Of a stretch of 64,000 nt of DNA, positions 16,041 to 33,344 are shown in pieces (position 1 is the stretch's first letter; every line of letters begins with the position of its first letter). The position numbers were made by a program, and so were the translations under genes. Source of the DNA: Xanthomonas bromi (GTDB taxonomy: Bacteria > Pseudomonadota > Gammaproteobacteria > Xanthomonadales > Xanthomonadaceae); assembly GCF_900092025.1 (NCBI RefSeq), contig NZ_FLTX01000041.1, positions 1-64,000 on the forward strand, in the 5' to 3' direction. The notes beneath the pieces are model-generated. The model did no database searches and had not been told where the DNA came from. It was given only the letters and a program-made list of their open reading frames with translations.

Positions 16041-16861
16041 CTCCGGTGGAGCTGTTCGATCTGGAACTGCGCGTGCTGCTGGAAGCGGTGTACCAGCGCT
16101 ATCACTACGATTTCCGCGACTATGCGGTGTCATCGTTGCGGCGGCGCATGCGCCACGCCATGGCGCGTTTCGAGTGCGCACGCGTGGCCGATCTGCAACA
16201 CCGGCTTCTGCACGAGCCGGACACCTTTGCGCAGGCGATGCAGTTCTTCACCGTGCAGGTGTCGGAGATGTTCCGCGACCCGGCATATTTCCGCGTGCTG
16301 CGCGAGCATGCGGTGCCGGTGTTGCGGACCTATCCCTCGATCAAACTCTGGGTAGCCGGCTGCAGTACCGGTGAAGAAGTCTGGTCGCTGGCCATCCTGC
16401 TGCACGAAGAAGGCCTGCTGGAAAAGTCGGTGATCTATGCCACCGACATCAACCCCGAGGCGCTGAGCCTGGCCGAAGCCGGTGCCTACGGCATCGATCG
16501 TATTGCGCAGTTCAGTCGCAATTATCTGGACGCCGGCGGCCGCACATCGCTGTCGGACTACTACACCACCGCGTACAACGGTGCCGTGCTCGACAGGCGC
16601 TTGAAGCGCAATATCGTGTTCGCCGATCACAGCCTGGCCACCGACACGGTGTTTTCCGAAGTGCACCTGGTGTCGTGCCGCAACGTGCTGATCTATTTCA
16701 ACCGCACGTTGCAGGACCGTGCGGTGGGATTGTTCTACGATGCGCTGGTGCATCGCGGTTTTCTCGGACTGGGTAGCAAGGAATCGCTGCAATTCGGCGC
16801 GCATGCGCAGGCCTTCGAACCCTGCGCACGCGAGCAACGCCTGTATCGGAAGGCCGCATGA
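16037..16861 (+). CDS. cheR: CheR-type protein-glutamate methyltransferase
   Basis: A 274-residue S-adenosylmethionine-dependent methyltransferase of the CheR family, which forms glutamyl methyl esters on chemoreceptor-like helices. The helical N domain is followed by the conserved FFTVQVSEMFRDP segment, the cofactor loop LWVAGCSTGEEVWS (about residues 110-122), YATDINPEAL and the VSCRNVLIYF motif. No chemoreceptor, CheA or CheW is encoded nearby, so the substrate is probably the coiled coil of the adjacent kinase. The start overlaps the preceding stop and the stop overlaps the next start, both as ATGA. Confidence 0.92.
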   Translation: MTPVELFDLELRVLLEAVYQRYHYDFRDYAVSSLRRRMRHAMARFECARVADLQHRLLHEPDTFAQAMQFFTVQVSEMFRDPAYFRVLREHAVPVLRTYPSIKLWVAGCSTGEEVWSLAILLHEEGLLEKSVIYATDINPEALSLAEAGAYGIDRIAQFSRNYLDAGGRTSLSDYYTTAYNGAVLDRRLKRNIVFADHSLATDTVFSEVHLVSCRNVLIYFNRTLQDRAVGLFYDALVHRGFLGLGSKESLQFGAHAQAFEPCAREQRLYRKAA

Positions 16862-17442
16862 ACCGCTTGTCTGCAGCGCAGGATTTCGACGCGATCGTGA
16901 TCGGTGCATCCGCTGGTGGCGTGATGGCCTTGCAGGCGTTGTTGTCCGGTCTGGCAGCGGGTTTGCCGGTGCCGATGCTGGTCGTGCTGCATCTGCCGCG
17001 CGACCGTCCCAGCCATATCGCCGAGCTGCTGGATGCGCGCTGCGCGCTGCCGGTGCGCGAGGCCGAGGACAAACAACCGCTGCTGGCCGGCACCGTCACT
17101 GTCGCCCCGCCCGACTACCACTTACTGGTGGAAACCCGCGACAGCCTGGCGTTGTCGATGGATGCGCCCGTGTTGTTTTCTCGCCCGGCGATCGACCCCT
17201 TGTTCGAGTCGGCTGCCGACGTGTTCGGCGCGCGCCTGCTGGCGATCCTGCTCACCGGTGCCAGCACCGATGGTAGCGCCGGTGTGGCGGCGGTGCGCGC
17301 TGTCGGCGGTACCGCCTGGATCCAGCGCCCCGATGACGCCGTCGCGTCGCTGATGCCCGCCGCCGCCCTCGCCCACGCCGGCGCCGATGCGGTACTCACC
17401 TTGCAGGCCATCTGCACCCGACTGGAAGCCTTTCACGCATGA
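16858..17442 (+). CDS. CheB-type methylesterase without receiver domain
   Basis: A 194-residue stand-alone glutamate methylesterase/deamidase domain. The catalytic triad is visible: Ser18 in IGASAGGV, His45 in VVLHLP and Asp138 in LTGASTDGSAG. Canonical CheB has an N-terminal receiver that controls the esterase; here it is absent, and a separate receiver is fused to the next gene product. It presumably reverses the methylation made by the upstream CheR. Overlaps both neighbours by four bases. Confidence 0.9.
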   Translation: MNRLSAAQDFDAIVIGASAGGVMALQALLSGLAAGLPVPMLVVLHLPRDRPSHIAELLDARCALPVREAEDKQPLLAGTVTVAPPDYHLLVETRDSLALSMDAPVLFSRPAIDPLFESAADVFGARLLAILLTGASTDGSAGVAAVRAVGGTAWIQRPDDAVASLMPAAALAHAGADAVLTLQAICTRLEAFHA

Positions 17443-18569
17443 ACATCACCGCGACCGGCCTGGCTGCAAGCAGCGACGACACCGAACAGGCCAAGGTCCT
17501 GATCGTGGACGATGTGCCGCAGAATCTGGTGGCGATGGAAGCGCTGCTGCAACGCGACGGCATCCGCGTGCTGTCTGCCGCATCCGGTGCGCAAGCACTG
17601 GAACTGTTGCTCGAACACGATGTGGCATTGGCGCTGCTGGATGTCCACATGCCGGAAATGGACGGTTTTTCGCTGGCGGAGTTGATGCGTGGGTCGCAGC
17701 GCACCCGGCATGTGCCGATCATTTTCTTGACCGCCTCACCGAACGATCCGATGCGTGCCTTCCAGGGCTACGAAACCGGCGCGGTAGATTTTCTGCACAA
17801 GCCGATCGAGCCGCACGTGATCCTGAGCAAGGTCAACGTGTTCATCGAGTTGTACCAGCAGCGACGACTGCTCAAGGCACGCAATGCCTCGCTGGAACGC
17901 GCGCTGACGCTCAACGAAACGATGATGGCGGTGCTCACCCACGACTTGCGCACGCCGCTGTCGGTGATCCTGCTGTGCGCGGACAAGCTCGGCCTGGACG
18001 TCGATGCGGCCAGTTCGGCTGCGCGCACGCTGGAGCATCTGGAACACAGTGCGCACCGCATGTCGCGCATGGTCGGGCAACTGCTGGATTTCTCGCGCCT
18101 GCGTACCGATGGCCTGCCGATGCAGTTCGGCCCGTGCAACCTCGGCGAGGTGGTGCACAGTGTCGTGGGCGAAGTGGCGCAGGCCAATCCGCACACCACC
18201 ATCGACCTACGCACCGAAGGCGACCTGGATGGCGAAGGCGATGGCGACCGGCTGGCGCAGGTCGTGTCCAATCTGGTCGGCAACGCGGTGTTGCACGGCG
18301 GCCGCCACCCGGTGCAGGTACACCTGGATGGACGCGAACACGACACGATGCGCCTATCGGTACGCAACGCCGGCAACATTCCCGACAGCCTGATGCCGCG
18401 CCTGTTCGAACCGTTCAAGGCCAGCTTCCATGCCAGCCAGGGGCTGGGACTGGGCCTGTTCATCGCCGACCAATTCGTCAAGGCACACGGCGGCACGCTG
18501 CAGGCGCGCAACGAGGACGGCGCCGTGGTGTTCGAAGCCAGACTGCGCCGCCACAATCTGGCGGCCTGA
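17439..18569 (+). CDS. Receiver-histidine kinase (REC-HisKA-HATPase)
   Basis: A 376-residue soluble protein with an N-terminal receiver (Asp68 in LLDVHMPEMDG, lysine in FLHKPIEP), a short coiled linker, a His domain with His168 in LTHDLRTPLSV, and an ATPase domain ending with GLGLGLFIADQF. The order receiver-then-kinase suggests it is switched by phosphotransfer from another kinase, such as the hybrid kinase three genes upstream. It closes the four-gene operon; no DNA-binding domain is encoded in the unit. Confidence 0.92.
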   Translation: MNITATGLAASSDDTEQAKVLIVDDVPQNLVAMEALLQRDGIRVLSAASGAQALELLLEHDVALALLDVHMPEMDGFSLAELMRGSQRTRHVPIIFLTASPNDPMRAFQGYETGAVDFLHKPIEPHVILSKVNVFIELYQQRRLLKARNASLERALTLNETMMAVLTHDLRTPLSVILLCADKLGLDVDAASSAARTLEHLEHSAHRMSRMVGQLLDFSRLRTDGLPMQFGPCNLGEVVHSVVGEVAQANPHTTIDLRTEGDLDGEGDGDRLAQVVSNLVGNAVLHGGRHPVQVHLDGREHDTMRLSVRNAGNIPDSLMPRLFEPFKASFHASQGLGLGLFIADQFVKAHGGTLQARNEDGAVVFEARLRRHNLAA

Positions 18570-20008: not shown

Positions 20009-22378
20009 TTACTGCCAGTTGACATTGACCGACACGCCCACGATGCGCGGCTCGTTATAGACGGCCGCCATGTAGTTTTCGATCACGCCCTTGACGTTCT
20101 TTTCGTTGGTGATGTTGCGTGCGAATGCCGCCACTTCCCACGCACCGTAGCCACCGGTATAGCCCAGCTTGAGCCCACCTTCGAAATTGCCGTCGGCGCG
20201 AAACTCGGTGGAGTCGTACAGCACGAAGCTGGTCTGCCCCTGCTTGTTCCAGTCGGTGGACACGAAGAACGCACCGTCGTTACCCATCGGGATGTCGTAA
20301 CGCGCGGCCAGGTTGAGGTTGTACTTGGGCGCATTGGGCAACGGGTTGCCGTCGATCTGCGCGAAGGTGTTGGCACCCACGCGGATGCTCGGGTCGTTGA
20401 CCGTGCACACCACCACACCATTGAGCGCGCAAGCCTGCGCGTAGACGCGCTTGTCGTTGATTTCGCTATGCAGCAGGCTCAGCCCGGCGGTGAGCGACAG
20501 GTTGGAGATCGGGCGCCAGTCCAGATCCGCTTCCATCCCGTAAGCCTTGGCCTTGTCGGCGTTGAACAACACGCCGTTGCCGTCCGAATCGTTGCCGTTG
20601 AGCTGGATGTCATCGACCGTGTAGGTGAAGCCGCTGACATTCAGACGCAGACGATTGTCGAACAGGCTGCTCTTGATGCCTGCTTCCCAAGACAGGATGG
20701 TTTCCGAATCGGCAGTGGTGAAATCCGAATTGAACACCGCGCTGCGGCCCTGGATGGTGGGGCCGCGGAAGCCGCGCGCCACGCGTGCATACACGCTCAG
20801 CTGTGGGTCGATTTCATACATCGCGCTCAGATCCCAGCTGGGCTGGGTGTCGGACAGGCGCACGTCGCGCCGGCCGCGATACGTCACCACACCGGCGGCA
20901 GTATCGGCGGTCTTGAGCAGACGGGTTTCCTTGGTGTCCTTGGTCTGGCGGAGACCGGCGGTCAGCGTCAGCGCGTCGGTGGCCTTGTAGCTGAGCTGAC
21001 CGAAGCCGGCCCACGAGGTATTGGTATTGCGCAGCCGCACCCAGTTGTTGGGATTGCGCGCGGCGGTGCGCAGGAAATACGCACGCTGATAGAAATCGGT
21101 GGTGTCGCGGCCATCGAAATAGAACGCGCCCACCTGCCATTGCAGCGCGTCGTCGCCTTCGCTGGCCAGACGCAGTTCCTGGGTGTACTGGTCCAGGTCG
21201 CGAATCTGCCCCATCGACTGGCCGAACCCGTTCGGCACGCCATTGACAGGGTAGTTGGCCGCGGCGCCGCCATCAGTGTCGCCACGGCTGTAGCCGGAGG
21301 TGGTTTCGTAGGCGGTGATCGAGGTCAGCGACACGCCGCCGAAGTCGTAGATCGCCTTGATCGAGCCGCCATCGGTCTGATACGCCTGCGGGTTGTCGTG
21401 CGCTTCGTCGTAGGCCACGCGATCGCGCGGCACGTCCACCTTGTCGCTGCCGCGGGTCACTGCATTGCGCAGGAACAACGTGGACGTGCCGTCGTAGTCG
21501 CGTGTATGCACCGAGCCCAGCAGCGAGAAGGCGTCATTGGGCTTGAGCAGCACCTGCAGGCGCGCATTGCGGTCGTTGTAGCCACCCATCGCGTCCTTGC
21601 GCGGCGTTCGCGTGCCATCGGCGCTGCTGCCGGCGAAGGTGTTGTCCACCCAGTCGTCGCGGTGCTGGTACAACGCCGAGACGCGGAACGACAGCACATC
21701 GTTGATCGGGCCGCCGAAGCCGCCATCCAGCGAGATGGTGTTGTAACTGCCGTAGCTGGCATCGAGACGGCCGGTGTAGGTATCGCCGGGCTTGACGGTG
21801 TCGAACTTGACGATGCCGGCAGTGGTGTTACGCCCGAACAGCGTGCCCTGCGGGCCGCGCAACACTTCGACCTGATCCACATCGTAGACCGGGTTGGATT
21901 TGAGCACCACATGCTCCAGCACCACATCGTCCTGGATGATGGACACCGGCTGCGAGGCGCCGAGATAGAAGTCGATGTTGCCCAGGCCGCGGATGTAGAA
22001 GCGCGGAAAGATGCGCCCGGTGGTGGTTTCGGCATAGAAGCCCGGCACGCGGCCGGACAGCGCCAGCAAGGTGTCGTCGCCACCGGCGGTATACTGGCGC
22101 ATTGCCGCGCCCTGCACTACGCCTACCGACACCGGCACGTCCTGCAGGTTCTGCTCGCGGTGCTCGGCGGTGACGGTGACCGTATCCAGCGCGGTCGGGC
22201 TGCCTTCGCCCTGCGTCGTCGGCGCCTGCTGCGCGGACGTGGTTGCCGCCAGCGAGGCAAGCAACAGGCCGGCGCAGGCACGTGCCAGCGGCGTCCGCTG
22301 CAAGGCGGTGCGACGGCGCGTAGCGACCTCTGCAATCGCGGACACCGACGACGGAAAGACAGGCGAGTACAACGACAT
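20009..22378 (-). CDS. TonB-dependent outer membrane receptor
   Basis: A 789-residue receptor. An extended, arginine-rich signal peptide ends near TTSAQ (about residue 50). A TonB box DTVTVTA lies at 65-71, the plug domain contains VEVLRGPQGTLFGRNTTAG, and about twenty beta strands follow to a C terminus in VNVNWQ. It imports a scarce substrate across the outer membrane using TonB energy. The sequence resembles the siderophore/plant-compound class with the RIFPRFYIRGLGNIDFYLG plug, but the ligand cannot be read from sequence. It is monocistronic, with its own terminator. Confidence 0.93.
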   Translation of the reverse strand: MSLYSPVFPSSVSAIAEVATRRRTALQRTPLARACAGLLLASLAATTSAQQAPTTQGEGSPTALDTVTVTAEHREQNLQDVPVSVGVVQGAAMRQYTAGGDDTLLALSGRVPGFYAETTTGRIFPRFYIRGLGNIDFYLGASQPVSIIQDDVVLEHVVLKSNPVYDVDQVEVLRGPQGTLFGRNTTAGIVKFDTVKPGDTYTGRLDASYGSYNTISLDGGFGGPINDVLSFRVSALYQHRDDWVDNTFAGSSADGTRTPRKDAMGGYNDRNARLQVLLKPNDAFSLLGSVHTRDYDGTSTLFLRNAVTRGSDKVDVPRDRVAYDEAHDNPQAYQTDGGSIKAIYDFGGVSLTSITAYETTSGYSRGDTDGGAAANYPVNGVPNGFGQSMGQIRDLDQYTQELRLASEGDDALQWQVGAFYFDGRDTTDFYQRAYFLRTAARNPNNWVRLRNTNTSWAGFGQLSYKATDALTLTAGLRQTKDTKETRLLKTADTAAGVVTYRGRRDVRLSDTQPSWDLSAMYEIDPQLSVYARVARGFRGPTIQGRSAVFNSDFTTADSETILSWEAGIKSSLFDNRLRLNVSGFTYTVDDIQLNGNDSDGNGVLFNADKAKAYGMEADLDWRPISNLSLTAGLSLLHSEINDKRVYAQACALNGVVVCTVNDPSIRVGANTFAQIDGNPLPNAPKYNLNLAARYDIPMGNDGAFFVSTDWNKQGQTSFVLYDSTEFRADGNFEGGLKLGYTGGYGAWEVAAFARNITNEKNVKGVIENYMAAVYNEPRIVGVSVNVNWQ

Positions 22379-22868
22379 GCGGGTTGATCCTAGGTAGTGA
22401 TGCGAGGTGATGACACAGGGTCCAGGCCGTTCGGCATGGCGCGCCCTTCGGCGGCGCAGCGTGGCGCCGCGCGCACGATATGTCAGCGATGTTGCAGCGG
22501 AGTGGCAGCCACTTCGATCCACGTCATCGCCACCGGCATGCAGGCATGCGACCACGCAGCGCTGGCAGCGCAACACGTCATGCCGCGCCACCGTGCATGC
22601 TGTCCTGCTGGTGTCGTACCGGCATTGCGCCGGAGCATGCCATGCGGGATCTCTTGAAACGACTCGGATGGATGGCCTGCCTGCTGGATGCACGTGTGCT
22701 CAGCACCGCGTCGGCCGGCGGTTTTCCAGGCGCCACATTCGGGCCGTACGCTTATACGCGGTGAGCGGCGCGCACGCATCGGCATGCAGATGTGGCGCAT
22801 GCCGTTTTCGAGCAACGGCCGCGCACGCGCTTCAGCTGCGCATGAATTTTATCGACCGCTTCAACGTG
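22379..22868. other. Intergenic, no gene recognised
   Basis: This 490-base spacer lies between the hybrid kinase stop and the TonB receptor start. It should hold the receptor promoter, but no clear -35/-10 pair was found. Short frames on both strands look like noise (His/Arg/Cys-rich). Confidence 0.5.
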
Positions 22869-24830
22869 CTACGCCCGCGCCAGCACGCTGCTGTCGAGCA
22901 TCTGTCCCACCGTGTTGAGCAGATCGTTGAGGCTGAAGGGCTTGGGCAGCAGGGCCATGCCTTCGGCCAGGAATTCCTGCCGCGTGGCCGCGTTCTCGGC
23001 GTAGCCGGTAATGAACAAAATCGGCAGACCCGGACGTAGCATGCGCGCCACATCCGCCATGTCGCGCCCGTTCATGCCGGGCAGGCCGACATCGGAAACC
23101 ACCAGATCGATATGCACCTCGGTGCGCAATTGTTCCAGCGCGCCGTTGGCATCTTCGGCTTCGATCACCTGGTAGCCGGCATCGCTGAGCACTTCGCTCA
23201 CCATCATGCGCACCACATCGGTGTCGTCGACCAGCAGGATGCGCTCGTTACGCGTGCGCGGTGCGCTTGGCGCCGGTGCCGGCAGCACCTCGTTGGCCGA
23301 GAGCCCACGCGGCAACAGCAGCGCCACCGTGGTGCCACGCCCCACATGACTGGTGATGCGCGCGGTTCCGCCGGATTGACGTGCGAACCCGTAAGTCATC
23401 GACAAGCCCAGGCCGGTGCCTTCGCCAATCGGTTTGGTGGTGAAAAACGGTTCGAACACCTGGTCAAGAATGGCCGGCTCGATGCCGCTGCCGTTGTCGA
23501 TCACATTCACTGCGACGTAGTCGCCGTCGTCCAGTTCCGGGTCGTTGTGCGCGGTGTAGGCTTCGCTCTGGATGCGGATGGTGCCCTGCCCTTTCAATGC
23601 ATCGCGCGCATTGATCACCAGGTTGAGCACCACGTTTTCGAGCTGATTGGCATCGGCGATCGCCACCAGCGGCGTGGACGCAAGCTCCAGTTCCAACTCG
23701 ATGTTTTCGCCGATCGACCGCTGCAGCATGTCTTCCAGCGAACGCACACGAATGTTGACGTCGAACGGTTGCGCATCCAGCGATTGCTTGCGTGCGAACG
23801 CCAGCATGCGCTGGGTCAGCGCGGCAGCACGGTGCGCCGAGCCGGTGGCGATCTCGGCCAGGCGGGGTACGCGCTCGATGCGGTTGGATTCCACCGCCAG
23901 CTGGATCATGTCCAACCCGGAAATGATGCTGGTCAGCAGGTTGTTGAAGTCGTGCGCGATGCCGCCGGTGAGCTTGCCCAGCGCTTCCATCTTCTGCGCC
24001 TGCAGCAGCTGGATTTCGGTGTGCTGACGCTGCGCGATCTGATGTGCGAGCTCGCTGGTGGCGGTATCCAGTTCCTGGCGCTGTTCGCGCTCGCGCAGGC
24101 GCTGCTCGGTGACGTCTTCCACCAACAACAGACCCAGATCCGGCTCGCGGTACGGAGACACCCGCCATTCGGTCTCGCACAGCTTGCCATCGCGCAGCAA
24201 CGACATCGCTCCGCTCCAACGCTCACGTTGCGCCAGCGCGGTGGTCAGGGCGTGCACGGCGGCCGCCTGATCCAGCCCGGCGGCGTGGATCGCCTCGCCG
24301 GGCGTAGCGCTGCCGATCAGGCGCTGAAACGCGGCATTGGCGTCGTGCGTGTGCAGGTTGGCATCCACCACCGCAATCGGCGCGCTGATATGTTCGAAGA
24401 TTTCGCGGAAGCGCGCTTCGCTGATGCGCAATGCCTCTTCTGCCCGACGGGCGCGCAGCAGCGTGCGCAGCGTGGCTACCAGCACGTTGGGGTCGACCGG
24501 ATGGATCAGGTAGGCGTCGGCACCGGCATCCAGCCCGGTAATCATGTCGCCGGTGGCAATCGAGGCCGCCGAGACATGCACCACCGGCAGCAGCGCGGTG
24601 CGCGGCTCCGCGCGCAGTATCCGCACGATGTCGAAGCCGCTCATGTCCGGCAGATTGACGTCCAGCACGACCGCGGCAAACGTCTGTGCGGCCAGTGTGG
24701 CCAGACCTTCGGTGCCGGTGCCGGCTTCTTCGACCACGAACTGGTGATGTTCGAGCACGCGCCGCACCGAATAACGCGTCACCGCATTATCGTCGACGAC
24801 CAGGATGTGCTGCTTACTGCCCACGTGCAT
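22869..24830 (-). CDS. Hybrid kinase REC-PAS-HisKA-HATPase-REC
   Basis: A 653-residue soluble protein. The N-terminal receiver has VVLDVNLPDMSG, the PAS domain covers about residues 140-250, His in GGIAHDFNNLLTS marks the kinase domain, an ATPase domain carries DNGSGIEP and GTGLGLSMTYGFA, and a C-terminal receiver has VVSDVGLPGMNG and LLPKPFSL. The first receiver's lysine region reads LIHPVDP instead of the usual K-P, so its switching may be altered. Last gene of the stressosome operon, overlapping the preceding kinase gene by 17 bases. It likely integrates the output. Confidence 0.9.
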   Translation of the reverse strand: MHVGSKQHILVVDDNAVTRYSVRRVLEHHQFVVEEAGTGTEGLATLAAQTFAAVVLDVNLPDMSGFDIVRILRAEPRTALLPVVHVSAASIATGDMITGLDAGADAYLIHPVDPNVLVATLRTLLRARRAEEALRISEARFREIFEHISAPIAVVDANLHTHDANAAFQRLIGSATPGEAIHAAGLDQAAAVHALTTALAQRERWSGAMSLLRDGKLCETEWRVSPYREPDLGLLLVEDVTEQRLREREQRQELDTATSELAHQIAQRQHTEIQLLQAQKMEALGKLTGGIAHDFNNLLTSIISGLDMIQLAVESNRIERVPRLAEIATGSAHRAAALTQRMLAFARKQSLDAQPFDVNIRVRSLEDMLQRSIGENIELELELASTPLVAIADANQLENVVLNLVINARDALKGQGTIRIQSEAYTAHNDPELDDGDYVAVNVIDNGSGIEPAILDQVFEPFFTTKPIGEGTGLGLSMTYGFARQSGGTARITSHVGRGTTVALLLPRGLSANEVLPAPAPSAPRTRNERILLVDDTDVVRMMVSEVLSDAGYQVIEAEDANGALEQLRTEVHIDLVVSDVGLPGMNGRDMADVARMLRPGLPILFITGYAENAATRQEFLAEGMALLPKPFSLNDLLNTVGQMLDSSVLARA

Positions 24831-25689
24831 CCTCCGCTGCCAACGTCACCGGCAGCACCACGTAAAATTCCGAGCCCTGCCCGACCACGCTGTTGATTCC
24901 GACCCGGCCGCCCAGCAATTCGGCGAACCGCTTGCAGATCGACAACCCCAGGCCGGTACCGGTGAGGCGTTTTTGCAGCGGCGAATCCACCTGTACGAAA
25001 TCTTCGAACAAGGCCCCGTGAAGCTCGGCCGGAATGCCGATGCCGGTGTCCTGCACGCCAAAGCGGACGTGGGCATCGCCTTCCAGCTGCGCAAACACGC
25101 GCACATGCCCGTGCGGGGTGAATTTGAGCGCGTTGGAAATGAAATTGCGCAGGATCTGCGCCAGCTTCTTGTCGTCGGTGTAGAGCATCGGCAACACCGG
25201 CGGATCATCGAATATCAGCGTGGTCGTGCCCGTATCGGTGAGCGGACGGAACATGCCGCGCAAGGCCGCGAACAAGTCCATCAGGTCGAACCAGCCCGGC
25301 GAGATGGTGATGCGCCCGGCCTCGATCTTGGCCAGATCCAGCAGGTCGTCCACCATCTCGGTGAGCTCGCGCGCCGAACCGCTGACGAAGCGCACCTGCT
25401 TGAGCTGCTCATCGTTGAGCGGTCCGTCCATGCCGTCTTCCAGCAAGCGGGTGATGCTCAGGATCGAACCCAACGGCGTACGGAACTCGTGGCTCATGTA
25501 CGACAGGAACCGACTTTTGAGTTCGGAGACATCGCGCAGCTGTTCGGCCTGCTGGTCGAGCTCGGCATACAGCGCCAGCACGCCCTGGTTGGTTTCTTCC
25601 AGCTCTTCGCGCAAGGCCTGATTCTGCTGCCGCAAGCTTTCGAGTTCGGCCGTCGTAGCGAGAGCCGATACATCGGTAGTCGAATTCAT
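24814..25689 (-). CDS. Soluble histidine kinase of the stressosome operon
   Basis: A 291-residue kinase without sensory domain. An N-terminal coiled coil (about residues 10-55) is followed by the His domain (YMSHEFRTPLGS) and the ATPase domain (DTGIGIPAEL, GTGLGLSICKRFAELLGG). The ATG at 25689 overlaps the upstream stop as ATGA. Lacking a sensor, it is probably controlled by protein partners, either RsbT or the PP2C fusion encoded just upstream, and would phosphorylate a receiver of the downstream hybrid kinase. Confidence 0.9.
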   Translation of the reverse strand: MNSTTDVSALATTAELESLRQQNQALREELEETNQGVLALYAELDQQAEQLRDVSELKSRFLSYMSHEFRTPLGSILSITRLLEDGMDGPLNDEQLKQVRFVSGSARELTEMVDDLLDLAKIEAGRITISPGWFDLMDLFAALRGMFRPLTDTGTTTLIFDDPPVLPMLYTDDKKLAQILRNFISNALKFTPHGHVRVFAQLEGDAHVRFGVQDTGIGIPAELHGALFEDFVQVDSPLQKRLTGTGLGLSICKRFAELLGGRVGINSVVGQGSEFYVVLPVTLAAEDARGQ

Positions 25690-26699
25690 TGCATGCCTCC
25701 TAAGCGCATGACGAACACACAGCAATCGTCACGTCCACGCGTGTAATCGCGTAGCAGCAGCGCAGCCACGATGCGTGGGTGGCGCGAAAGCAGCCCGGGG
25801 TGGTCGCGCAGATTCCAGCGCGATTGCAGGCCATCGCTGTGCATCACCAACAGCTTGCCAGCCGCCTGCGGGAAGTCGAACGGTTGCGCCTTGCGAACCT
25901 GTGCGCCGACGATGCCCGGATGCGATGGCATGCCGCGCACGCCATCGCCGTCGCACAGCGATGCGACGATATTACCCACCCCGGCAAAGCGCACTTTGCC
26001 GCTGCTCGCATCGAACTGCATGACCGCCGCCGCGCCGCCGCGCGTACCGCTCATGCCGGCATGCAGCCGCGCGATGCGCTCGCCGGGCTCGCCATTGGCC
26101 AGCGCCGCAGCGCGCGTGCCGGCATCTGCCGCATCGGCCGCACCTGGCCCGTGGCCCAGACCGTCGATCACGCTGACAGTCACACGCTGCGCGTCGATCG
26201 CAAAGTGCCAACCATCGCCGCACACCACTTCGCTGTGTAGCGGCACGCGCAGCGCGCCGTAGGGCATATCCAATTCCGCACGTGGCTGGGCGAACACGCG
26301 CGCCAGCACAATCGCGCCCTTGGCATCGGAATAGGCATCCAGCAGCTGCGCCTGGCGCTTGATCGCACCCAGGCCGGTGCCCGGCGTGCCGGCGGTGGAA
26401 TAGCCATCGCGCAGGCCATCTGCAAGCGTGAAGCCCGGGCCGTCATCGACAGCGCACAGCTCCACGCCCAAGCCGCCGTCGCGTGCAGCCACCGTAGACA
26501 GCTGCAGGAAACCGCCACGCCCATGTTTGACCATATTGGTGGCAAGTTCGGTGGCGACCAGCGCAACCCGCCCACAGCCGGCTTCGTCGAAGCCGAGTGC
26601 CTGTGCCAACGCGGTTGCTTCGCGGCGCGCCTGCCCGACTTGACTCGTTTCCTCGACACGAAACGAGCGGGTCACCGCGCCGGCGACATTCACTTCCAT
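25686..26699 (-). CDS. Fusion of RsbT/RsbW-like ATPase and RsbX-like PP2C phosphatase
   Basis: A 337-residue two-domain protein. Residues about 10-135 form a GHKL ATPase of the anti-sigma kinase type (N box VATELATNMVKHG, G boxes DDGPGF and GTGLGAIKR). Residues about 150-335 form a SpoIIE/RsbX-like phosphatase with SVIDGLGHGPGAADAA, GKVRFAGVGN, LLVMHSDGLQSRW and GRDDCCVFVM, keeping the metal-binding aspartates. RsbX resets stressosomes by dephosphorylating RsbR and RsbS; here the same chain also carries a kinase-like domain. The stop overlaps the histidine kinase start as ATGA, and its start overlaps rsbT by 10 bases. Confidence 0.88.
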   Translation of the reverse strand: MEVNVAGAVTRSFRVEETSQVGQARREATALAQALGFDEAGCGRVALVATELATNMVKHGRGGFLQLSTVAARDGGLGVELCAVDDGPGFTLADGLRDGYSTAGTPGTGLGAIKRQAQLLDAYSDAKGAIVLARVFAQPRAELDMPYGALRVPLHSEVVCGDGWHFAIDAQRVTVSVIDGLGHGPGAADAADAGTRAAALANGEPGERIARLHAGMSGTRGGAAAVMQFDASSGKVRFAGVGNIVASLCDGDGVRGMPSHPGIVGAQVRKAQPFDFPQAAGKLLVMHSDGLQSRWNLRDHPGLLSRHPRIVAALLLRDYTRGRDDCCVFVMRLGGMQ

Positions 26700-27085
26700 T
26701 TGGTGATGGTGATGCGCGTGCCCTCGCCCGGCGCTGTGTCGAGGACGAAGTCATCCACCAGCCGGCGGCTGCCGGACAGGCCCAGGCCGAGTCCGCCGCC
26801 GGAGGTCCAGCCATCGGTCAGCGCCAGGTCCAGATCGGGAATGCCGGGCCCCTGGTCGCGAAAGGTCAGCCGCACGCCCTTGCGGATGCCGCTTTCCACC
26901 AGCGCCCAATCCATGTCGCCGCCACCGCCGTAGATCACGGTGTTGCGCGCCAGCTCGCTGGCCGCGGTGACCAGCTTGGTCTGGTCGACCAGCCGCAGGC
27001 CGCATTGCACCACCAGCTTGCGCACGGTCTGCCGCGCGAGCACCACATCCTGTTCGGTGCGCACCGGTTGGGAACCCGTCGTCAT
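26690..27085 (-). CDS. rsbT: Stressosome serine/threonine kinase RsbT
   Basis: A 131-residue GHKL kinase of the RsbT family. The N box ASELARNTVIYGGGG and the G boxes RDQGPGIPD and GGGLGLGLSGSRRLVDDF are intact. In known stressosomes RsbT phosphorylates RsbR and RsbS, is released on stress and then activates a downstream partner. No RsbU phosphatase is encoded here, so the released kinase must act on another target, possibly the fusion phosphatase or the histidine kinases. Overlaps rsbS by ATGA and the next gene by 10 bases. Confidence 0.92.
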   Translation of the reverse strand: MTTGSQPVRTEQDVVLARQTVRKLVVQCGLRLVDQTKLVTAASELARNTVIYGGGGDMDWALVESGIRKGVRLTFRDQGPGIPDLDLALTDGWTSGGGLGLGLSGSRRLVDDFVLDTAPGEGTRITITKWK

Positions 27086-27444
27086 GCAGTCTCGTCGGGT
27101 TGCTGCAACAGGCGCATGCCGCGTTCGACATTGAGCGCGGTGCGTACCGAGGGCAAGGTCAGGCCCAGCTCGACCAGCGTGATCGCCACGGCTGGCTGCA
27201 TGCCCACCACCACGGTTTGCGCGTCCATGATTGCGGCCAGCCCGGAGATGGTGCTGATCATGCGACCGATGAACGAATCGACGATATCCAGCGCGGAAAT
27301 GTCGATCAGCACGCCACGCGCGGAGGTGCTGCTGATCTTTTCCGACAGATCTTCCTGCAACTGCAGCGCGAGCTGATCGTGCATGTCCACCTGGATGGTG
27401 ACCAGCAGTAGATCGCCCATCCGCAGGATCGGGATACGCTCCAT
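27082..27444 (-). CDS. rsbS: Stressosome scaffold RsbS (STAS domain)
   Basis: A single STAS domain of 120 residues. The segment IDISALDIVDSFIGRMIS closely matches RsbS, with the phosphorylated serine at position 57 conserved. RsbS co-assembles with RsbR into the icosahedral stressosome and sequesters RsbT. Start ATG at 27444, one base after the rsbR stop; the stop overlaps the rsbT start by four bases. Confidence 0.93.
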   Translation of the reverse strand: MERIPILRMGDLLLVTIQVDMHDQLALQLQEDLSEKISSTSARGVLIDISALDIVDSFIGRMISTISGLAAIMDAQTVVVGMQPAVAITLVELGLTLPSVRTALNVERGMRLLQQPDETA

Positions 27445-27445
27445 G

Positions 27446-28288
27446 TCAGCTCGCCTTGCTGACGGTCACGCCGGTGCGCTTGAGCGCCAGCGCCAGCGCA
27501 TCGGCCAGGTTGGCTTTGGTGACGATGCCTTGCAGATCCAGGCCCAGATGCACGATGGTCTGCGCAATCTGCGGGCGCACGCCGCTGATGATGGCATCGG
27601 CCCCCATCAGCCGGATCGCGGTGACGGTCTTGAGCAAGTGCTGCGCCACCAGCGTGTCCACGGTGGGCACGCCGGTGATGTCGATGATGGCGATTTCCGA
27701 GCCGGTATCGACAATGCGCTGCAACAGCGACTCCATCACCACCTGTGTACGCTGCGAATCCAGCGTGCCGATCATCGGCAAGGCCAGCACGCCGTCCCAC
27801 AGTTTCACCACCGGAGTGGAGAGCTCCAGCATCTCTTCCTGCTGACGCACGATGATGTCTTCGCGGGTCTTCTGGAACGCCTTGACGGTGTACAGGCCCA
27901 GGCGGTCGAGCAATTCCGATAGCGCCCACAGCTGCTGGCCGAGCTCTTCCGGGGTACTGACGTATTCGCGCTGCACCAGCGCAAACAACACACGCTTGAG
28001 CGAAAAGATGAAGTTGGCGGTCTCCTGCGAATCGAAGCCGCGCGTGGCGCGGTCCCGCGAGAGATTTTCCAGAAAGCGCCGCACCTCGCTCCACTCGGCG
28101 CTGTCCAGGCTGCTGCCGTCGTCCTTCAACGAGGTCACCAGCAGGCGCAGGAATTCGCCCGCCTGCGCTTCGAACTCCTGCCGCGACAGACGCGCATCAT
28201 TGCCCGGTGTGGAACCCAGCCATGCGGCCAGCAACGCACTTTCCTGGCCACGAATCGCATCGATGGAGCGCTGTTGCAATGCCACCAT
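27446..28288 (-). CDS. rsbR: Stressosome sensor-scaffold RsbR
   Basis: A 280-residue protein with an all-helical N-terminal sensory region (about 1-155) and a C-terminal STAS domain. The STAS sequence keeps the RsbR motif VPTVDTLVAQHLL with a phosphorylatable Thr, and a Ser in TLDSQRTQ at the position of the second RsbR phosphosite. The N-terminal domain has no haem-binding signature that I can identify, so the signal is unknown. The ATG at 28288 is chosen over upstream in-frame codons because family similarity begins there; the ribosome-binding site is weak. First gene of the operon. Confidence 0.9.
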   Translation of the reverse strand: MVALQQRSIDAIRGQESALLAAWLGSTPGNDARLSRQEFEAQAGEFLRLLVTSLKDDGSSLDSAEWSEVRRFLENLSRDRATRGFDSQETANFIFSLKRVLFALVQREYVSTPEELGQQLWALSELLDRLGLYTVKAFQKTREDIIVRQQEEMLELSTPVVKLWDGVLALPMIGTLDSQRTQVVMESLLQRIVDTGSEIAIIDITGVPTVDTLVAQHLLKTVTAIRLMGADAIISGVRPQIAQTIVHLGLDLQGIVTKANLADALALALKRTGVTVSKAS

Positions 28289-28962: not shown

Positions 28963-31287
28963 TTACAACCCGTAACGCTCCACCGCAGCCAGATGCCGCT
29001 GCGGATCCTGGCCGCAGGCTTCGGCAAGTCGCAACCAGCACATCGGATGCGGCCACTGCGCTGTGGCTGCAAGCAAGGCGCGATGCAATTCGAGCGGCGC
29101 AACCGCTTCCGGCAAGGCCACGGTGAACAGCACGCCCGGCAAACCCGAACCCGCCCCTTCCGGATCGAAGCCATCCGGATCGTCCGGGTCGATCAACCGA
29201 TAGTCGTCGCGACTATGCAGCCACAGCTTCCAACCGCGCGCGTCGATATCATTGCGCAACGCATCGATGGCTGCTTCGCCAGGATGCACGCCGTCTACCA
29301 GCCAGCTGTTCGCATAGCCTCCCGCCTGCAGCACATGCACCTGCGCGTAAGTCGGCACAAAATGCTCGCGTTCGGCCTCGTCTTCCGGCAGCGGATACAG
29401 CAGTTCAGCGTCGAACACCACCCAGTCGCCGACATGCTGGCGCCGATGCGCGGGCGCGTTCTCGACGATGCGTGCAGTCACCGGGCCGGTCCGGCGCGCG
29501 TAATACTCGGCTAGCTCGCCATCGTCGATGCACCGCACGATCACCCAGCCCAAGGTCTCTTCGACCACGCCGCTGGTGCTGCTCAGCTCCATGCCGATCG
29601 CCTGCGCAGAGGCACGTACAGCGTCCCAATCCTGCGCCGCACTGGCCGCCGTCATGTGGTCCCAATACGCAGAACGCGGCTCTTCCAGCAGCTCGGTGAG
29701 TTGCCGGTAGACAGCGGCAGCCTCCGCAAACCGGTGGGTGTTGAGATACATGCGCGCCAACAGCCCACGCGCACCGTGCGAGCCGGGCGACAGCTCCACT
29801 AGTGCGGTGCAGGCGCGCTCCAACGCCGGCCAATCGGCCAACCGCTGCGCCAGCTGCGCCTCGCACCACAAGGCCGCCACCGGCACCTGCGGGCGATACA
29901 ACTGCGCCAACCGACGCACACCGGCGTCATCGCCGCGGCCCAGCAACAGATTCATCAGACGAAACGTCGGGCTGGTCTCGCGATCGGCATGCCGCTGCAC
30001 GAATGACCACAGCAAGGTGATCGCGTCCTCGTCGGCCGCGCAGGCGCTCAAGGCCGACGCAGTGGTGTCCACAAGCTCGGCATCGTCCGGACATTGCGCA
30101 ACCGCCTGCAGCAGCCACTGCGCTTCGCGCTCGGGATTACGCGCGGCATCGTCGCCTCGCGCGTTCAACCATTCCAGTAATTGTGCGGCCGGGACCGGCG
30201 CGACTTCTCCCGCAGGCGCCGCATCGATGCGTGCGGCCAAATCATCCAGCACCTGCGTTGCCCCGCGGTCCTGGCGCAGCTTGGGCAGATGCGCACGCGC
30301 AAGCGCCAGATGCCGGCGTGCGGTCCATATCGCGCCACGCTGCAGTGCCAGGTCGATCGCAAGCTCGGCCGCCTCGATCAGCATGCGATATGCACCGACC
30401 TGCACGTAGTGATCGAGCATCAGCTGCAAGCGGCTGCCCAGGTCCCAGCTATTACGCTCGGGCGCAAGCGACACCAGCACTGCCACTGCACGCAACCAAT
30501 GCAGGCGGTAACGCGGGGCAACCTTGCGCCATGGCAGCAGCGCTTCCATTGCTTCGTCGTCGCGATGCAACAAGGCCAGCGCGCGCGCTTTCTGCAGGCG
30601 CCGCGGCTGGCTGCAATTGGCCCACTCGGCGCCTTCGCGTGCTGCTTCGCGTTCGCGTTGCTCGATCAATGCCAGAGCGTCTTTCGCGCGCCCTAACGCG
30701 AGCAGGATCGAGATACGCATATCCGGCACGCCGTCATAGATCTCGCCACCGTGGGCCACGATGGTCTGCGTCTGCCGGTCCAGATACGCCAATGCCGCCT
30801 CGCCGCGCCCGTCGTCGAGCAAGGCATCGGCTTTTTCGCAACTCAGGCACTGATAGCACGACCAGTTCGGGTCGATGCGGCCCAGCGTTTCCTCGCAGAC
30901 CTCGATACGCTCCTGCACCCAGCCCGGACCATCGATGTTGGCGTAGCACGCGGCAAGATCCTGGGTGACGCAGACCGACTGCGGGCAGTCCACCGCATCG
31001 GCACGGTGCGCCCGCTCGAACAGTGCCACCGCATCGCCCAGCGCGCGTTCGCCCTCGCACAGGTTGCCGACCCGGTTGCGCATTTCCCAATGACCGACAA
31101 AGACTTCCAGCCAGGGGTTGGCCAGGGTTTTGCCCAGCGCACGCGCCTCGGGCAGCAACGCTTCGGCACGTTCGATCTGCAGATCGCAGATATGGTCGGT
31201 CAGGCGGGTGAGCAGTTGCGCGTTCTGCGGCTGCCCGGCTTCGCCCAGATCGTCCTGCAGCTTCTCCACCCAGTTCCAGATTTCCAT
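28963..31287 (-). CDS. Large TPR-repeat protein paired with an HSP90-like ATPase
   Basis: A 774-residue protein without signal peptide or membrane segment. The first 560 residues are helical pairs with TPR character (for example residues about 150-260 and 420-540, with ALALLHRDDEAMEALLPW and YLNTHRFAEAAAVYRQL). The last 180 residues form a different alpha/beta region containing VGDWVVFDAELLYPLP and a DDYRLIDPDDPDGFDPEG acidic stretch; I do not recognise its family. It starts 22 bases after the HSP90-like gene, so the two are co-transcribed. In eukaryotes TPR proteins are HSP90 co-chaperones, and the pairing suggests a similar physical link, but no function is known to me. Confidence 0.8.
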   Translation of the reverse strand: MEIWNWVEKLQDDLGEAGQPQNAQLLTRLTDHICDLQIERAEALLPEARALGKTLANPWLEVFVGHWEMRNRVGNLCEGERALGDAVALFERAHRADAVDCPQSVCVTQDLAACYANIDGPGWVQERIEVCEETLGRIDPNWSCYQCLSCEKADALLDDGRGEAALAYLDRQTQTIVAHGGEIYDGVPDMRISILLALGRAKDALALIEQREREAAREGAEWANCSQPRRLQKARALALLHRDDEAMEALLPWRKVAPRYRLHWLRAVAVLVSLAPERNSWDLGSRLQLMLDHYVQVGAYRMLIEAAELAIDLALQRGAIWTARRHLALARAHLPKLRQDRGATQVLDDLAARIDAAPAGEVAPVPAAQLLEWLNARGDDAARNPEREAQWLLQAVAQCPDDAELVDTTASALSACAADEDAITLLWSFVQRHADRETSPTFRLMNLLLGRGDDAGVRRLAQLYRPQVPVAALWCEAQLAQRLADWPALERACTALVELSPGSHGARGLLARMYLNTHRFAEAAAVYRQLTELLEEPRSAYWDHMTAASAAQDWDAVRASAQAIGMELSSTSGVVEETLGWVIVRCIDDGELAEYYARRTGPVTARIVENAPAHRRQHVGDWVVFDAELLYPLPEDEAEREHFVPTYAQVHVLQAGGYANSWLVDGVHPGEAAIDALRNDIDARGWKLWLHSRDDYRLIDPDDPDGFDPEGAGSGLPGVLFTVALPEAVAPLELHRALLAATAQWPHPMCWLRLAEACGQDPQRHLAAVERYGL

Positions 31288-31309
31288 CGCACGTCCTTCG
31301 ATGCGGCGC

Positions 31310-33175
31310 TCAGCGCGCCAGCAGTTGACTCACCGCCTCGGCAAGATCGCCGAAGGCCTTGTTCAGATCGCCACCACCCGCCTCGACACCGCCGGGCGGC
31401 GCGGTGCGGCCTTGCGCAGACACGATCACCTTCAGCGAGCGCAGCAACCGCGCCGCGACCACCGCCTGCGGATTGCCGGCACGCTGCGCGGCCAGCAAGG
31501 CCTGCAGCGCCGGATTATCGAGATTCAGATACAGCCGCTGAGTCTGCCGCGCTTCGATGCGCGCGGTGAATTGCCGCGCCAGCCGCAACGCCGCAGTGGA
31601 CACCCGCTTGTCGTTCTCGTCCTGCTCCAGCCGACGTTTGAGCTCGGCCTCGCGATCAGGCACCACCACCAGCGGCAATTCCTGCGGACTGAAACGCGCC
31701 GGCACCAGCGCTTCGCCATCGCCCAGATGCTGTTCCAGCCAGGCCAGTTCATCGGCCGGCAGCGTGTCCAGATGGAACAACTGGCGGTTGCCCTGCTCGG
31801 TGCCCAGCTCGACCAGGCGTACCCCTTTGGCCTGTGCCCAACGCCGCAGAAACGGCACCACCGCATACCGATTTCCATAGGCCACCGGCACGCCCATCGC
31901 GCGGAACAGCGTTTCTTCGAAACCGCTGTCGCTGTCCAGGATCACATGCACCGCACCGCGCGACGGCAATTGCTGCGCCGGCAGATCGCCTTGCGACGTC
32001 GGCACCCGTACGTGTTCCAGCAGCAAGTCGAACAGGCGCTCATCGCACAGCGCCGCGCCCAGCAGGGCTTCGTTGTGACGTATCAGAATGCGTCGCCACG
32101 CTTCCGGCTGCTGGCGTGCGACATCGGCCAGGCCTTGCACCAGAGCCTCGGACAAGGCGTGCTGCACCGAGCTATAGACCGTATCGCGCTGCAAATCCTC
32201 GCGGCTTGCGGTAGGCGTCAACCGATTGGATTCGATCACCCCACCGATGAAGCCCGCCCACGGCGGCAGCAGCTCGCGCGCATTGTCGTCCAACAACATG
32301 CCACGCAGGAACACGGACAGATTGCGGTTGTCGCTGGTGCCATAGGTGGCGCCGTCCTGCACCCACAACAGGCCGACCGCATCGCTGCCCTCTTCCGCAC
32401 GCACCGGCATGCAGCACAACGGCTCGAAATTGTGCTCGAAGCGCGCGGCGAACTCGCGTTGACGGCGCCAGGCCTGCACCGGATGCAGCGGCACGGCGTC
32501 CTGCATGCGCCACGGCGGCGGCTCGGGATTGATCGGCTGCGGATCGGCACCGATACAGATCGGCTCACGTAAGAGCGCGCAGTAACGCGACAGAATCTCG
32601 CGCAACCGTCCTTCCTGTGCCAACGACAGATAATCGTCGTGCAGTTCCAGCACCACCTCGGTGCCCACCTGCGCACGCGCCGGCATCGGGCTGACCGTGT
32701 ACTGCTCAGCATTACTGGAGATGTAGCAATGACCCAGCGTGGGAGACTGGTACGAGGTCGTGCGTACGGTCACCCGCCGCGCCAGCACGAAGGCGGACAA
32801 AAAGCCCAGGCCGAACATGCCGATCAGGCCGCTGTCCTCGTGGCCGCCCTGGCGTAGCCCACGTGTGTAACCCACCCCCACGGTGGCCAGGTAATCGTGG
32901 ATTTCCTGCTGGGTCAGTCCGGCACCGGTATCGACGATGCGCACGCTGCCTTGCGCGGCATCGGCATGCACTTCGATGCGCGATTCGCCTTGCCAATCGG
33001 GTTGTTCCAGACGGCGACGCAGGATGGAGTCGTGCGCGTTCTGTACCAGCTCGCGCAGCGCCACCACCGGAGTGGAATACAGGTGCTTGCTGAGGACCGA
33101 CATCAGTCCATTGAGATCGACGCCTGCCCGCCGGATCTGCGAGGCGTCGTCCGCCTCGGAAGTGTGGTCTTGCAT
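31310..33175 (-). CDS. HSP90-family ATPase, divergent from HtpG
   Basis: A 621-residue HSP90-like protein. The N-terminal GHKL ATPase domain has LRELVQNAHDSI (catalytic Glu and Mg-binding Asn), DTGAGLTQQEI and GMFGLGFLSAFVLARRV, and the middle domain includes LFLRG-type VFLRGMLLDDN and PTASREDLQRD. It differs from HtpG in the lid (VGVGYTRGL in place of the IAKSGT motif) and in a divergent C-terminal region, so it is a separate lineage. Start ATG at 33175; 34 extra upstream codons are open but Arg/Trp-rich. It lies 211 bases downstream of hrpX on the same strand. Confidence 0.88.
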   Translation of the reverse strand: MQDHTSEADDASQIRRAGVDLNGLMSVLSKHLYSTPVVALRELVQNAHDSILRRRLEQPDWQGESRIEVHADAAQGSVRIVDTGAGLTQQEIHDYLATVGVGYTRGLRQGGHEDSGLIGMFGLGFLSAFVLARRVTVRTTSYQSPTLGHCYISSNAEQYTVSPMPARAQVGTEVVLELHDDYLSLAQEGRLREILSRYCALLREPICIGADPQPINPEPPPWRMQDAVPLHPVQAWRRQREFAARFEHNFEPLCCMPVRAEEGSDAVGLLWVQDGATYGTSDNRNLSVFLRGMLLDDNARELLPPWAGFIGGVIESNRLTPTASREDLQRDTVYSSVQHALSEALVQGLADVARQQPEAWRRILIRHNEALLGAALCDERLFDLLLEHVRVPTSQGDLPAQQLPSRGAVHVILDSDSGFEETLFRAMGVPVAYGNRYAVVPFLRRWAQAKGVRLVELGTEQGNRQLFHLDTLPADELAWLEQHLGDGEALVPARFSPQELPLVVVPDREAELKRRLEQDENDKRVSTAALRLARQFTARIEARQTQRLYLNLDNPALQALLAAQRAGNPQAVVAARLLRSLKVIVSAQGRTAPPGGVEAGGGDLNKAFGDLAEAVSQLLAR

Positions 33176-33344
33176 GATCGGTCGTCGTTTCCTCGGCGAC
33201 GACGCCCATCCTCGGACGCGCCCCCCTGGGTGCCAGTGCCAGCCGGAAAGGATAGCCGCAAGCCACCTAGCACGCACGTCTCAGTTCAGCCCCTGCCCTA
33301 CGTTGCGCACCGCGACGACCGCTGCATCCCCCGACAAAACGACC

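What the first reader, a model, noticed from the sequence alone, without database searches (positions are those of the whole stretch)
22869..28288. Stressosome operon wired to histidine kinases, without sigma factor or DNA-binding output
Six overlapping genes encode RsbR, RsbS, RsbT, a kinase-PP2C fusion, a sensorless histidine kinase and a REC-PAS-HK-REC hybrid. Phosphosites of RsbR (Thr in VPTVDT) and RsbS (Ser57) are intact, and RsbU and sigma-B are absent. In Firmicutes the RsbT signal ends in sigma-B; here it must go through two-component proteins, as in the Vibrio-type stressosome modules. The unit lies 5 kb from hrpX, so a link to virulence control is worth testing, but that link is inference.
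Basis: partly seen in the sequence, partly recalled or inferred. Interest (0 to 1): 0.75.

Follow-up and report, generated by a model that had tools for sequence, protein, structure and literature searches.

The report
Stressosome operon feeding histidine kinases
This is a six-gene bacterial stress-sensing operon of a known kind, and comparing it with relatives points to a conserved helical segment on its histidine kinase as the likely place where the stress signal enters the kinase.

Summary
On the minus strand, 22869-28288, six tightly packed genes encode RsbR, RsbS, RsbT, an RsbT-like-kinase/PP2C fusion (TX here), a short histidine kinase (HK) and a REC-PAS-HK-REC hybrid. Phosphosites and catalytic residues are intact. 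No RsbU_N domain and no SigB-family sigma factor was found in the genome. The module is a known kind: stressosomes without sigma-B are published for Proteobacteria (PMC9237108, passages).

What adds to it is the coupling step. Just before its catalytic helix the HK carries ELEETNxGVxALYAELD, about as conserved as the phospho-His box. In 299 genomes of the phylum its profile matched 13 times, each 1.05-1.58 kb downstream of rsbT. In Deinococcus, Alphaproteobacteria and Actinomycetota the segment follows a fused, sometimes decayed, RsbT-like domain and precedes a histidine kinase or a PP2C phosphatase. A tree suggests that the Xanthomonas-type HK lost this domain. Best reading, inferred: RsbT released from the stressosome acts on this coiled coil, as RsbT does on the RsbU linker.

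The hrpX neighbourhood is genus-wide but separable; a functional link is not supported.

The parts
27446..28288 (-). RsbR: all-helical N-terminal domain (RsbRD_N) + helix + STAS; phosphosites Ser211 and Thr245 (numbering of the 313-aa longest ORF)
   Evidence: Pfam RsbRD_N 76 bits, STAS 49 bits; sites invariant in 80 of 80 relatives; model pLDDT 84, best PDB match Listeria stressosome 7b0u, TM-score 0.48
27082..27444 (-). RsbS: single STAS domain, phosphosite Ser57
   Evidence: Pfam STAS 31 bits; Ser57 in 80 of 80
26690..27085 (-). RsbT: kinase of the HATPase (Bergerat) fold
   Evidence: Pfam HATPase_c/HATPase_c_2; PDB sequence relatives anti-sigma F factor; in the tree of kinase domains it lies in a group of 19 RsbT rows (96/96); RsbT rows as a whole (26) are not one clade
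25686..26699 (-). TX: RsbT/RsbW-like kinase domain fused to an RsbX-like PP2C phosphatase; both active sites intact
   Evidence: Pfam HATPase_c_2 + SpoIIE; PDB sequence hits 3zt9 (SpoIIE) and RsbX 3w40 over residues 155-330; active-site residues in 80 of 80
24814..25689 (-). Short histidine kinase without a recognised sensor domain: coiled-coil linker + HisKA + HATPase_c
   Evidence: Pfam; phospho-His in 77 of 77 aligned relatives; model of the 291-aa protein shows one helix over residues 5-84 running through linker and HisKA
25525..25620 (-). Linker signature QALREELEETNQGVLALYAELDQQAEQLRDVS, proposed docking/coupling site for RsbT (or TX)
   Evidence: Mean entropy 0.43 bits for residues 40-58 (303-aa ORF numbering) against 2.13 for 13-39 and 0.36 for 59-90, the phospho-His region; profile found only downstream of RsbT in 299 genomes
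22869..24830 (-). Hybrid kinase REC-PAS-HisKA-HATPase-REC; proposed acceptor of phosphate from the short HK; REC1 Asp57, His110 in place of the usual Lys; REC2 Asp580
   Evidence: Pfam; REC1 Asp57 77 of 77 aligned, His110 74 of 77, REC2 Asp580 74 of 77 with 3 gaps

Best explanation
A complete minimal stressosome (RsbR, RsbS, RsbT) with a feedback enzyme (TX) whose output is a two-component phosphorelay. Proposed working: under stress RsbT phosphorylates RsbS and RsbR, leaves the complex and binds the coiled-coil linker of the short HK. This orders the kinase dimer and changes its activity, as RsbT orders the linker of the RsbU phosphatase. The HK then phosphorylates the first REC of the hybrid kinase encoded next to it, and the hybrid passes phosphate through its second REC to a partner outside the operon. 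TX resets RsbR/RsbS with its PP2C domain; its kinase domain may compete for STAS proteins or for the linker. Shown by sequence: gene content, intact active sites, no RsbU_N or SigB-family match in the genome, conservation of the linker, its restriction to RsbT neighbourhoods in the genomes searched, and natural fusions of an RsbT-like domain to the same linker. Inferred: RsbT binding to the linker, direction of the switch, phosphotransfer between the two kinases, and final target.
For: (1) RsbR-RsbS-RsbT-TX in order in 80 of 80 loci; signature downstream of RsbT in 78 of 80, the 2 without it (L111, L112) having no ORF after TX that matches the HK or hybrid models. (2) The linker is about as conserved as the phospho-His region while the 27 residues before it vary. 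(3) In 299 genomes of the phylum the linker profile matched once in each of 13 genomes, each RsbT-positive, 1054-1576 bases downstream of rsbT; none in the 265 genomes without an RsbT match (Fisher 5e-14). (4) In 13 loci the effector after TX carries an RsbT-like domain before its coil (10 of the 13 with the signature); these domains lie on one side of a branch (100/97) apart from RsbT and TX. (5) A decayed RsbT-like domain plus the signature precedes kinases and also PP2C phosphatases in actinomycetes. (6) On the HK tree the signature kinases form one clade (39 rows, 100/99) and the short ones (28 rows, 96/90) nest inside the fused ones. (7) Gene 6 of relatives holds a receiver domain in 6 of 6 scanned (L060, L107, L145, L146, L149, L151). 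(8) Precedent: RsbT activates RsbU by binding and ordering its coiled-coil linker (PMC12143880, abstract and passages).
Against: No binding or kinase data. The linker co-occurs with TX as well as with RsbT, so TX could be the partner. Heinz et al. failed to show an interaction of V. vulnificus RsbT with its downstream kinase (PMC9237108), although that kinase is of another class. Three loci with RsbT-like/HK fusions (L153, L177, L180) lack the signature, so it is not universal. A conserved coil next to HisKA could serve dimerisation alone. In 21 of 34 RsbT-positive genomes, all with more distant RsbT, the signature was not found. Six of the 16 profile rows come from genomes in which it was then found, so mainly its absence elsewhere is independent evidence. 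The hybrid kinase is less constant than the rest: in Burkholderiales loci it scores about 170-250 bits against 660 and more in Pseudomonas with a full-length copy.
Confidence: 0.6

Rival explanations
1. TX, not RsbT, is the partner of the HK linker: its kinase domain docks on the coil (or phosphorylates it), and RsbT acts only inside the stressosome.
For: TX is encoded immediately upstream of the HK (4-base overlap). The signature loci examined have the fused form of RsbX (in L145 split over two frames); plain-RsbX loci L152, L154, L158, L165 show no signature.
Against: The domain fused to the HK in relatives scores nearer to the RsbT model (59-118 bits) than to TX (28-59 bits) in the 10 loci where both scores were printed; L149 printed RsbT 106 only, the decayed L150 and L172 RsbT 28 and 32 only. 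TX with its kinase domain also occurs without the signature (L153, L155, L166, L177, L179, L180).
Confidence: 0.25
2. RsbT activates the HK by phosphorylating it on Ser/Thr in a transient encounter (the proposal of Heinz et al. for stressosomes without RsbU_N).
For: RsbT has an intact ATP site; the linker has an invariant Thr (Thr45 in the 303-aa ORF). Proposal in PMC9237108 section 10.
Against: Bacillus RsbT activates RsbU by binding (PMC12143880 passages). Decayed RsbT-like domains without the ATP-site Asn (L150, L172) are kept next to the coil, which suggests that contact, not catalysis, matters.
Confidence: 0.15
3. The stressosome here controls hrpX and virulence, and its place beside hrpX reflects that.
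For: Same contig in 32 of 32 Xanthomonas genomes with RsbT, 2.1-8.3 kb apart.
Against: No relative of the AraC gene was found in the flanks of 75 of 75 non-Xanthomonas loci; 2 complete Xanthomonas genomes keep it without an RsbT match; in the window two further genes lie between (TPR-like and HSP90-like).
Confidence: 0.07
4. The linker conservation reflects only HK dimerisation; HK and stressosome are co-inherited neighbours with another coupling.
For: Coils next to HisKA commonly dimerise (general knowledge); the helix is continuous with HisKA in the model.
Against: The same signature precedes PP2C phosphatases and kinases resembling the window's hybrid next to RsbT, so it follows the stressosome rather than the effector; 6 of 6 HK homologues away from RsbT lack it.
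Confidence: 0.2

Closest known systems
Vibrio vulnificus / V. brasiliensis stressosome with D1-D2 two-component module (PMC9237108 passages and section 10; PMC10014275 passages; PMC4976288 abstract)
   Same: RsbR, RsbS, RsbT and an RsbX-type phosphatase followed by two-component genes, no sigma-B, no RsbU_N detected
   Different: Vibrio RsbR is a haem globin sensor, RsbX is a single domain, and output is predicted to be c-di-GMP. Here RsbX is fused to a kinase domain, the HK is short with a signature coil, and gene 6 is REC-PAS-HK-REC
Bacillus subtilis RsbT-RsbU switch (PMC12143880 abstract and passages)
   Same: RsbT leaves the stressosome; a coiled-coil linker in front of the output enzyme is the relay there and the proposed one here
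   Different: RsbU has a RsbU_N domain and a PP2C output leading to sigma-B; here no RsbU_N was found, the output is a histidine kinase with its own coil signature
Moorella thermoacetica stressosome with GGDEF output (as cited in PMC12143880)
   Same: Stressosome with non-sigma output
   Different: RsbU_N-type receiver and diguanylate cyclase
Xanthomonas campestris RsbR, reported as expressed and phosphorylated towards stationary phase (as cited in PMC9237108)
   Same: Probably the orthologue of this RsbR (same genus; not compared by sequence here)

Membership tests
Stressosome (RsbRST module) | RsbR with N-terminal sensor domain and C-terminal STAS domain with phosphorylatable residues | tested here: met
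   Pfam; Ser211/Thr245 in 80 of 80
Stressosome (RsbRST module) | RsbS, single STAS with conserved Ser | tested here: met
Stressosome (RsbRST module) | RsbT kinase with intact ATP site, encoded next to rsbS | tested here: met
Stressosome (RsbRST module) | Assembly into a large complex and RsbT-dependent phosphorylation | not testable with these tools
   needs purified proteins; only fold similarity of RsbR to 7b0u shown
Vibrio-type (RSTX) stressosome | Single-domain RsbX | tested here: not met
   TX carries an extra kinase domain, as in 80 of 80 relatives
Vibrio-type (RSTX) stressosome | Globin-coupled haem-binding RsbR | tested here: inconclusive
   Pfam finds RsbRD_N, no globin family; V. vulnificus RsbR aligns by sequence only from query residue 115 on; haem binding not testable
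Vibrio-type (RSTX) stressosome | Downstream c-di-GMP enzyme | tested here: not met
   no GGDEF/EAL/HD domain in the six genes
SigB-type stressosome pathway | RsbU (RsbU_N + PP2C), RsbV/W and sigma-B | tested here: not met
   RsbU_N 0 matches in the window's genome; 10 of 11 sigma-domain hits scanned, none SigBFG over cut-off
RsbT-coupled effectors with RsbU_N | RsbU_N domain on the effector | tested here: not met
   no RsbU_N match in the genome
Effectors with the signature coil (described here) | ELxxTNxGVxALYAEL helix directly before the catalytic part, encoded just downstream of RsbT and TX | tested here: met

The most novel reading that the evidence does not exclude
A portable stressosome receiver: an RsbT-like domain (intact, decayed or lost) plus a near-invariant coiled-coil signature, fused in front of histidine kinases of two kinds and PP2C phosphatases in three phyla (Pseudomonadota, Deinococcota, Actinomycetota), through which one kind of stressosome drives different outputs without RsbU_N. 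The Xanthomonas HK would be the stripped form, in which free RsbT supplies in trans the domain that relatives carry in cis.
Probability: 0.5. Interest if true: 0.65.

Novelty: new variant of a known kind. Interest (0 to 1): 0.5.

Why it matters
How stressosomes signal to outputs that lack RsbU_N is left open in the Vibrio work (PMC9237108 section 10). The signature coil and the natural RsbT-like fusions name one short segment to test, in harmless laboratory organisms that carry either form, and offer a mark by which uncharacterised effectors beside RsbT can be sorted.

Tried and rejected
Chance or misannotation of the operon: rejected (80 of 80 related loci).
hrpX control as the meaning of the neighbourhood: not supported.
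A hidden sigma-B or RsbU target in the genome: not found. The one sigma-domain hit below cut-off (L033) was not scanned, and L027 matched no family at E <= 1e-25.
A phosphotransfer protein for REC2 was not sought in the genome.
Paper searches that led nowhere: the text of the motif (3 papers, unrelated by title, none opened); Xanthomonas campestris phosphoproteome with RsbR (none). PMC9108719 (Xanthomonas citri; one occurrence of 'stressosome') was seen only in the listing.
That the signature and its RsbT-like fusions are unpublished rests only (listings) and on the parts of four papers seen in the held library; reviews on stressosomes that these papers cite were not available.
The HK tree has long branches that meet (actinomycete kinases with L151/L157, reported), so the deepest joins and the single loss of the fused domain are uncertain. 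The outgroup of 6 rows was not one side of any branch (1 row on the wrong side).
The E-values of the decayed domains are for a set of only ten sequences picked for the purpose and look better than they would in a database search; the bit scores are 22-52 for the kinases and 41-42 for two phosphatases, and the third phosphatase (L176, 7.8 bits) is not convincing.
Full report
WHAT IS THERE. The six genes lie on the minus strand at 22869-28288 in the order rsbR, rsbS, rsbT, TX, HK, hybrid HK. rsbR starts with ATG at 28288. Junctions: rsbR/rsbS one base apart, rsbS/rsbT 4 bases overlap, rsbT/TX 10, TX/HK 4, HK/hybrid 17, as translationally coupled genes would have. Domains: RsbRD_N+STAS; STAS; HATPase; HATPase_c_2+SpoIIE (PP2C); HisKA+HATPase_c; REC-PAS-HisKA-HATPase-REC. 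The consensus promoter scan found nothing, and terminator-like sites were at shuffle level, so transcription limits are unknown.

CONSERVATION. RsbR, RsbS, RsbT and TX lie in this order on one strand in 80 of 80 (L072 with about 1.3 kb between RsbR and RsbS), all six genes in order in 75 of 80. Residue counts over the 80: RsbR Ser211 80, Thr245 80; RsbS Ser57 80; RsbT E44, N48, D77 80; TX E51, N55, D85, G89 80 and PP2C D179, D289, D324, D325 80; HK phospho-His 77 of 77 aligned; hybrid REC1 Asp57 77 of 77 aligned. REC1 has His110 where receivers usually have Lys (74 of 77; the usual Lys is recalled). The first RsbR site is Ser here, Thr in Listeria RsbR, Ser in the V. vulnificus chain (alignments). 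I take it as the B. subtilis T171 position from recall.

DISTRIBUTION. RsbT relatives: 32 of 35 genomes of the genus (E <= 1e-30; one of the three misses, G326, is 81% complete), 19 of 149 of the family (6 of them of the genus itself), and 34 of 299 of the phylum (E <= 1e-8). So the module is nearly fixed in the genus but patchy outside it.

NO SIGMA-B ROUTE FOUND IN THIS GENOME. RsbU_N: 0 matches. SpoIIE: 3 matches, the other two being a PP2C protein beside its own HATPase and STAS genes and a PP2C-type phosphatase (labels are mine). Sigma70 region 2: 11 matches, 10 scanned: RpoD, RpoH, FliA and RpoE over their cut-offs, one ECF-type model over its cut-off (L028), the superfamily model on L031, weaker ECF-like matches on three (L029, L030, L032), and no family at E <= 1e-25 on L027. 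The SigB/F/G model appears only under its cut-off, on RpoD and FliA.

THE COUPLING SEGMENT. Pfam sees no sensor domain in the HK. After 27 variable residues (13-39 of the 303-aa ORF, mean entropy 2.13 bits) comes ELEETNQGVLALYAELD and its edges (40-58, 0.43 bits), then the phospho-His region (59-90, 0.36 bits); the rest of the kinase has 0.76 bits. An AlphaFold2 model (pLDDT 79.7, 16 sequences; 291-aa protein, numbering 12 lower) shows one helix over residues 5-84 that runs through segment and HisKA; a single chain cannot show the dimer. By regular-expression match the segment lies within 4.5 kb downstream of RsbT in 78 of 80 loci and nowhere else in their six-frame ORFs (1.85 million residues). 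The two without it (L111, L112) have no ORF after TX that matches the HK or hybrid models. A profile of 32 positions searched in 299 genomes (E <= 1e-4) matched once in each of 13, each RsbT-positive, 1054-1576 bases downstream of rsbT; 0 of 265 genomes without an RsbT match had it. Those 13 are the genomes with the closest RsbT (54-100% identity); the other 21 RsbT-positive genomes have none. Six of the 16 profile rows come from these 13 genomes, so presence there is partly built in; absence elsewhere is not. The distance falls into two sets, 1054-1211 bases for short kinases (7 genomes) and 1531-1576 for fused ones (6), as an added domain would give.

FUSIONS. In the stretches read from other genomes and plasmids (20; 23, of which 6 were HK homologues away from RsbT), the effector after TX often carries an extra RsbT-like domain before its coil. 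There are 13 such domains (L145 and L175 Deinococcus, L147-L151, L153, L157, L170 Sphingomonas, L172 Caballeronia, L177 Paraburkholderia, L180 Alloyangia), 11 of 13 with the E..N pair of the ATP site. They lie on one side of a branch (100/97), apart from RsbT and from the TX kinase domains (99/91); RsbT rows themselves are not one clade. In actinomycete effectors a decayed version is detectable: the N-terminal match covers only about the first 50-75 of 129 model positions, 51.5 bits in Embleya (L169), 37.1 in Nonomuraea (L173), 22.4 and 21.9 in two Streptomyces kinases (L113, L107), 42.1 and 41.4 in two Streptomyces PP2C phosphatases (L168, L167), and an unconvincing 7.8 in a third (L176). The window's HK shows only its own ATPase domain (4.5 bits). 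In those four kinases the signature is doubled. Effectors behind the signature are classical HisKA kinases, kinases resembling the window's hybrid (L147, L148, L170; CckA-like) and PP2C phosphatases (L167, L168, L176). Six of six HK homologues from loci without RsbT lack it (L181-L186). Against the pattern: L153, L177 and L180 have the fused domain without the signature; in the plain-RsbX loci L152, L154, L158, L165 and L178, and in L155, L164, L166 and L179, neither was detected on the effector, or no effector was recognised; L171 and L174 show no effector in the stretch read.

TREE. On HK cores (49 rows) the signature kinases form one clade (39 rows, 100/99). The short kinases of Xanthomonas, Pseudomonas and Burkholderiales (28 rows, 96/90) lie inside the fused ones, with the Deinococcus fusions next to them (97/89). 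The simplest reading is loss of the RsbT-like domain with retention of the coil. Long branches and an imperfect outgroup limit this.

MECHANISM. Bacillus RsbT switches on RsbU by binding RsbU_N and the adjoining linker and ordering a coiled coil (PMC12143880: abstract and passages). The authors suggest that such linkers let histidine kinases be driven likewise. For stressosomes without RsbU_N the Vibrio authors leave the route open and propose transient phosphorylation (PMC9237108 section 10). The pattern above fits another route: RsbT, or a cis-fused relative, acts on a signature coil. Which of RsbT and TX binds, and what REC2 controls, is not decided here. A receiver is present in gene 6 of six of six relatives scanned, which fits it as the acceptor, though the hybrid is less conserved in Burkholderiales. 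In Streptomyces L107 gene 6 holds REC and SpoIIE, so there the relay may return to partner switching.

hrpX. No relative was found near RsbT in 75 of 75 non-Xanthomonas loci, and G316 and G317 have it without an RsbT match. This argues for stable gene order, not for shared function.

NOVELTY. The module is a known kind. PMC9237108 and PMC10014275 (passages) describe rsbRSTX modules without sigB in Proteobacteria, and the first cites phosphorylated RsbR of X. campestris. The signature coil with its RsbT-like fusions I did not find in print (held library only).

Noticed in passing
L144 (NZ_CP034650.1, Xanthomonas vasicola NCPPB 1060 'plasmid' pXVH29, 29 kb): The block from a helix-turn-helix regulator gene through an ATP-binding protein (HSP90-like position), TPR and the whole stressosome operon is annotated on a 29-kb circular 'plasmid'; since the block is chromosomal in other Xanthomonas (L034, L035) this may be an assembly product or an excised segment.
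   Followed up: no
window 28963-33277: HSP90-family protein (31310-33277) followed by a 774-aa protein with no Pfam family that is annotated as tetratricopeptide repeat protein in X. vasicola; among L034-L113 found beside the stressosome only in the 5 Xanthomonas loci.
   Followed up: partly
window 12765-18569: GAF-HK with three REC domains, CheR, CheB and REC-HK in a row; a like arrangement occurs on plasmids of Sphingomonas (L181) and Allorhizobium (L183).
   Followed up: no
window 22869-24830, residue His110: The first receiver of the hybrid kinase has His where Lys is usual, in 74 of 77 aligned relatives; its chemistry may be atypical.
   Followed up: no
L107, L113, L169, L173: Actinomycete kinases beside RsbT carry the signature twice in tandem.
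   Followed up: partly
window 20009-22693: A TonB-dependent receptor gene follows the operon on the same strand, in the 5 Xanthomonas loci too; the V. [quoted passage not shown]
   Followed up: no
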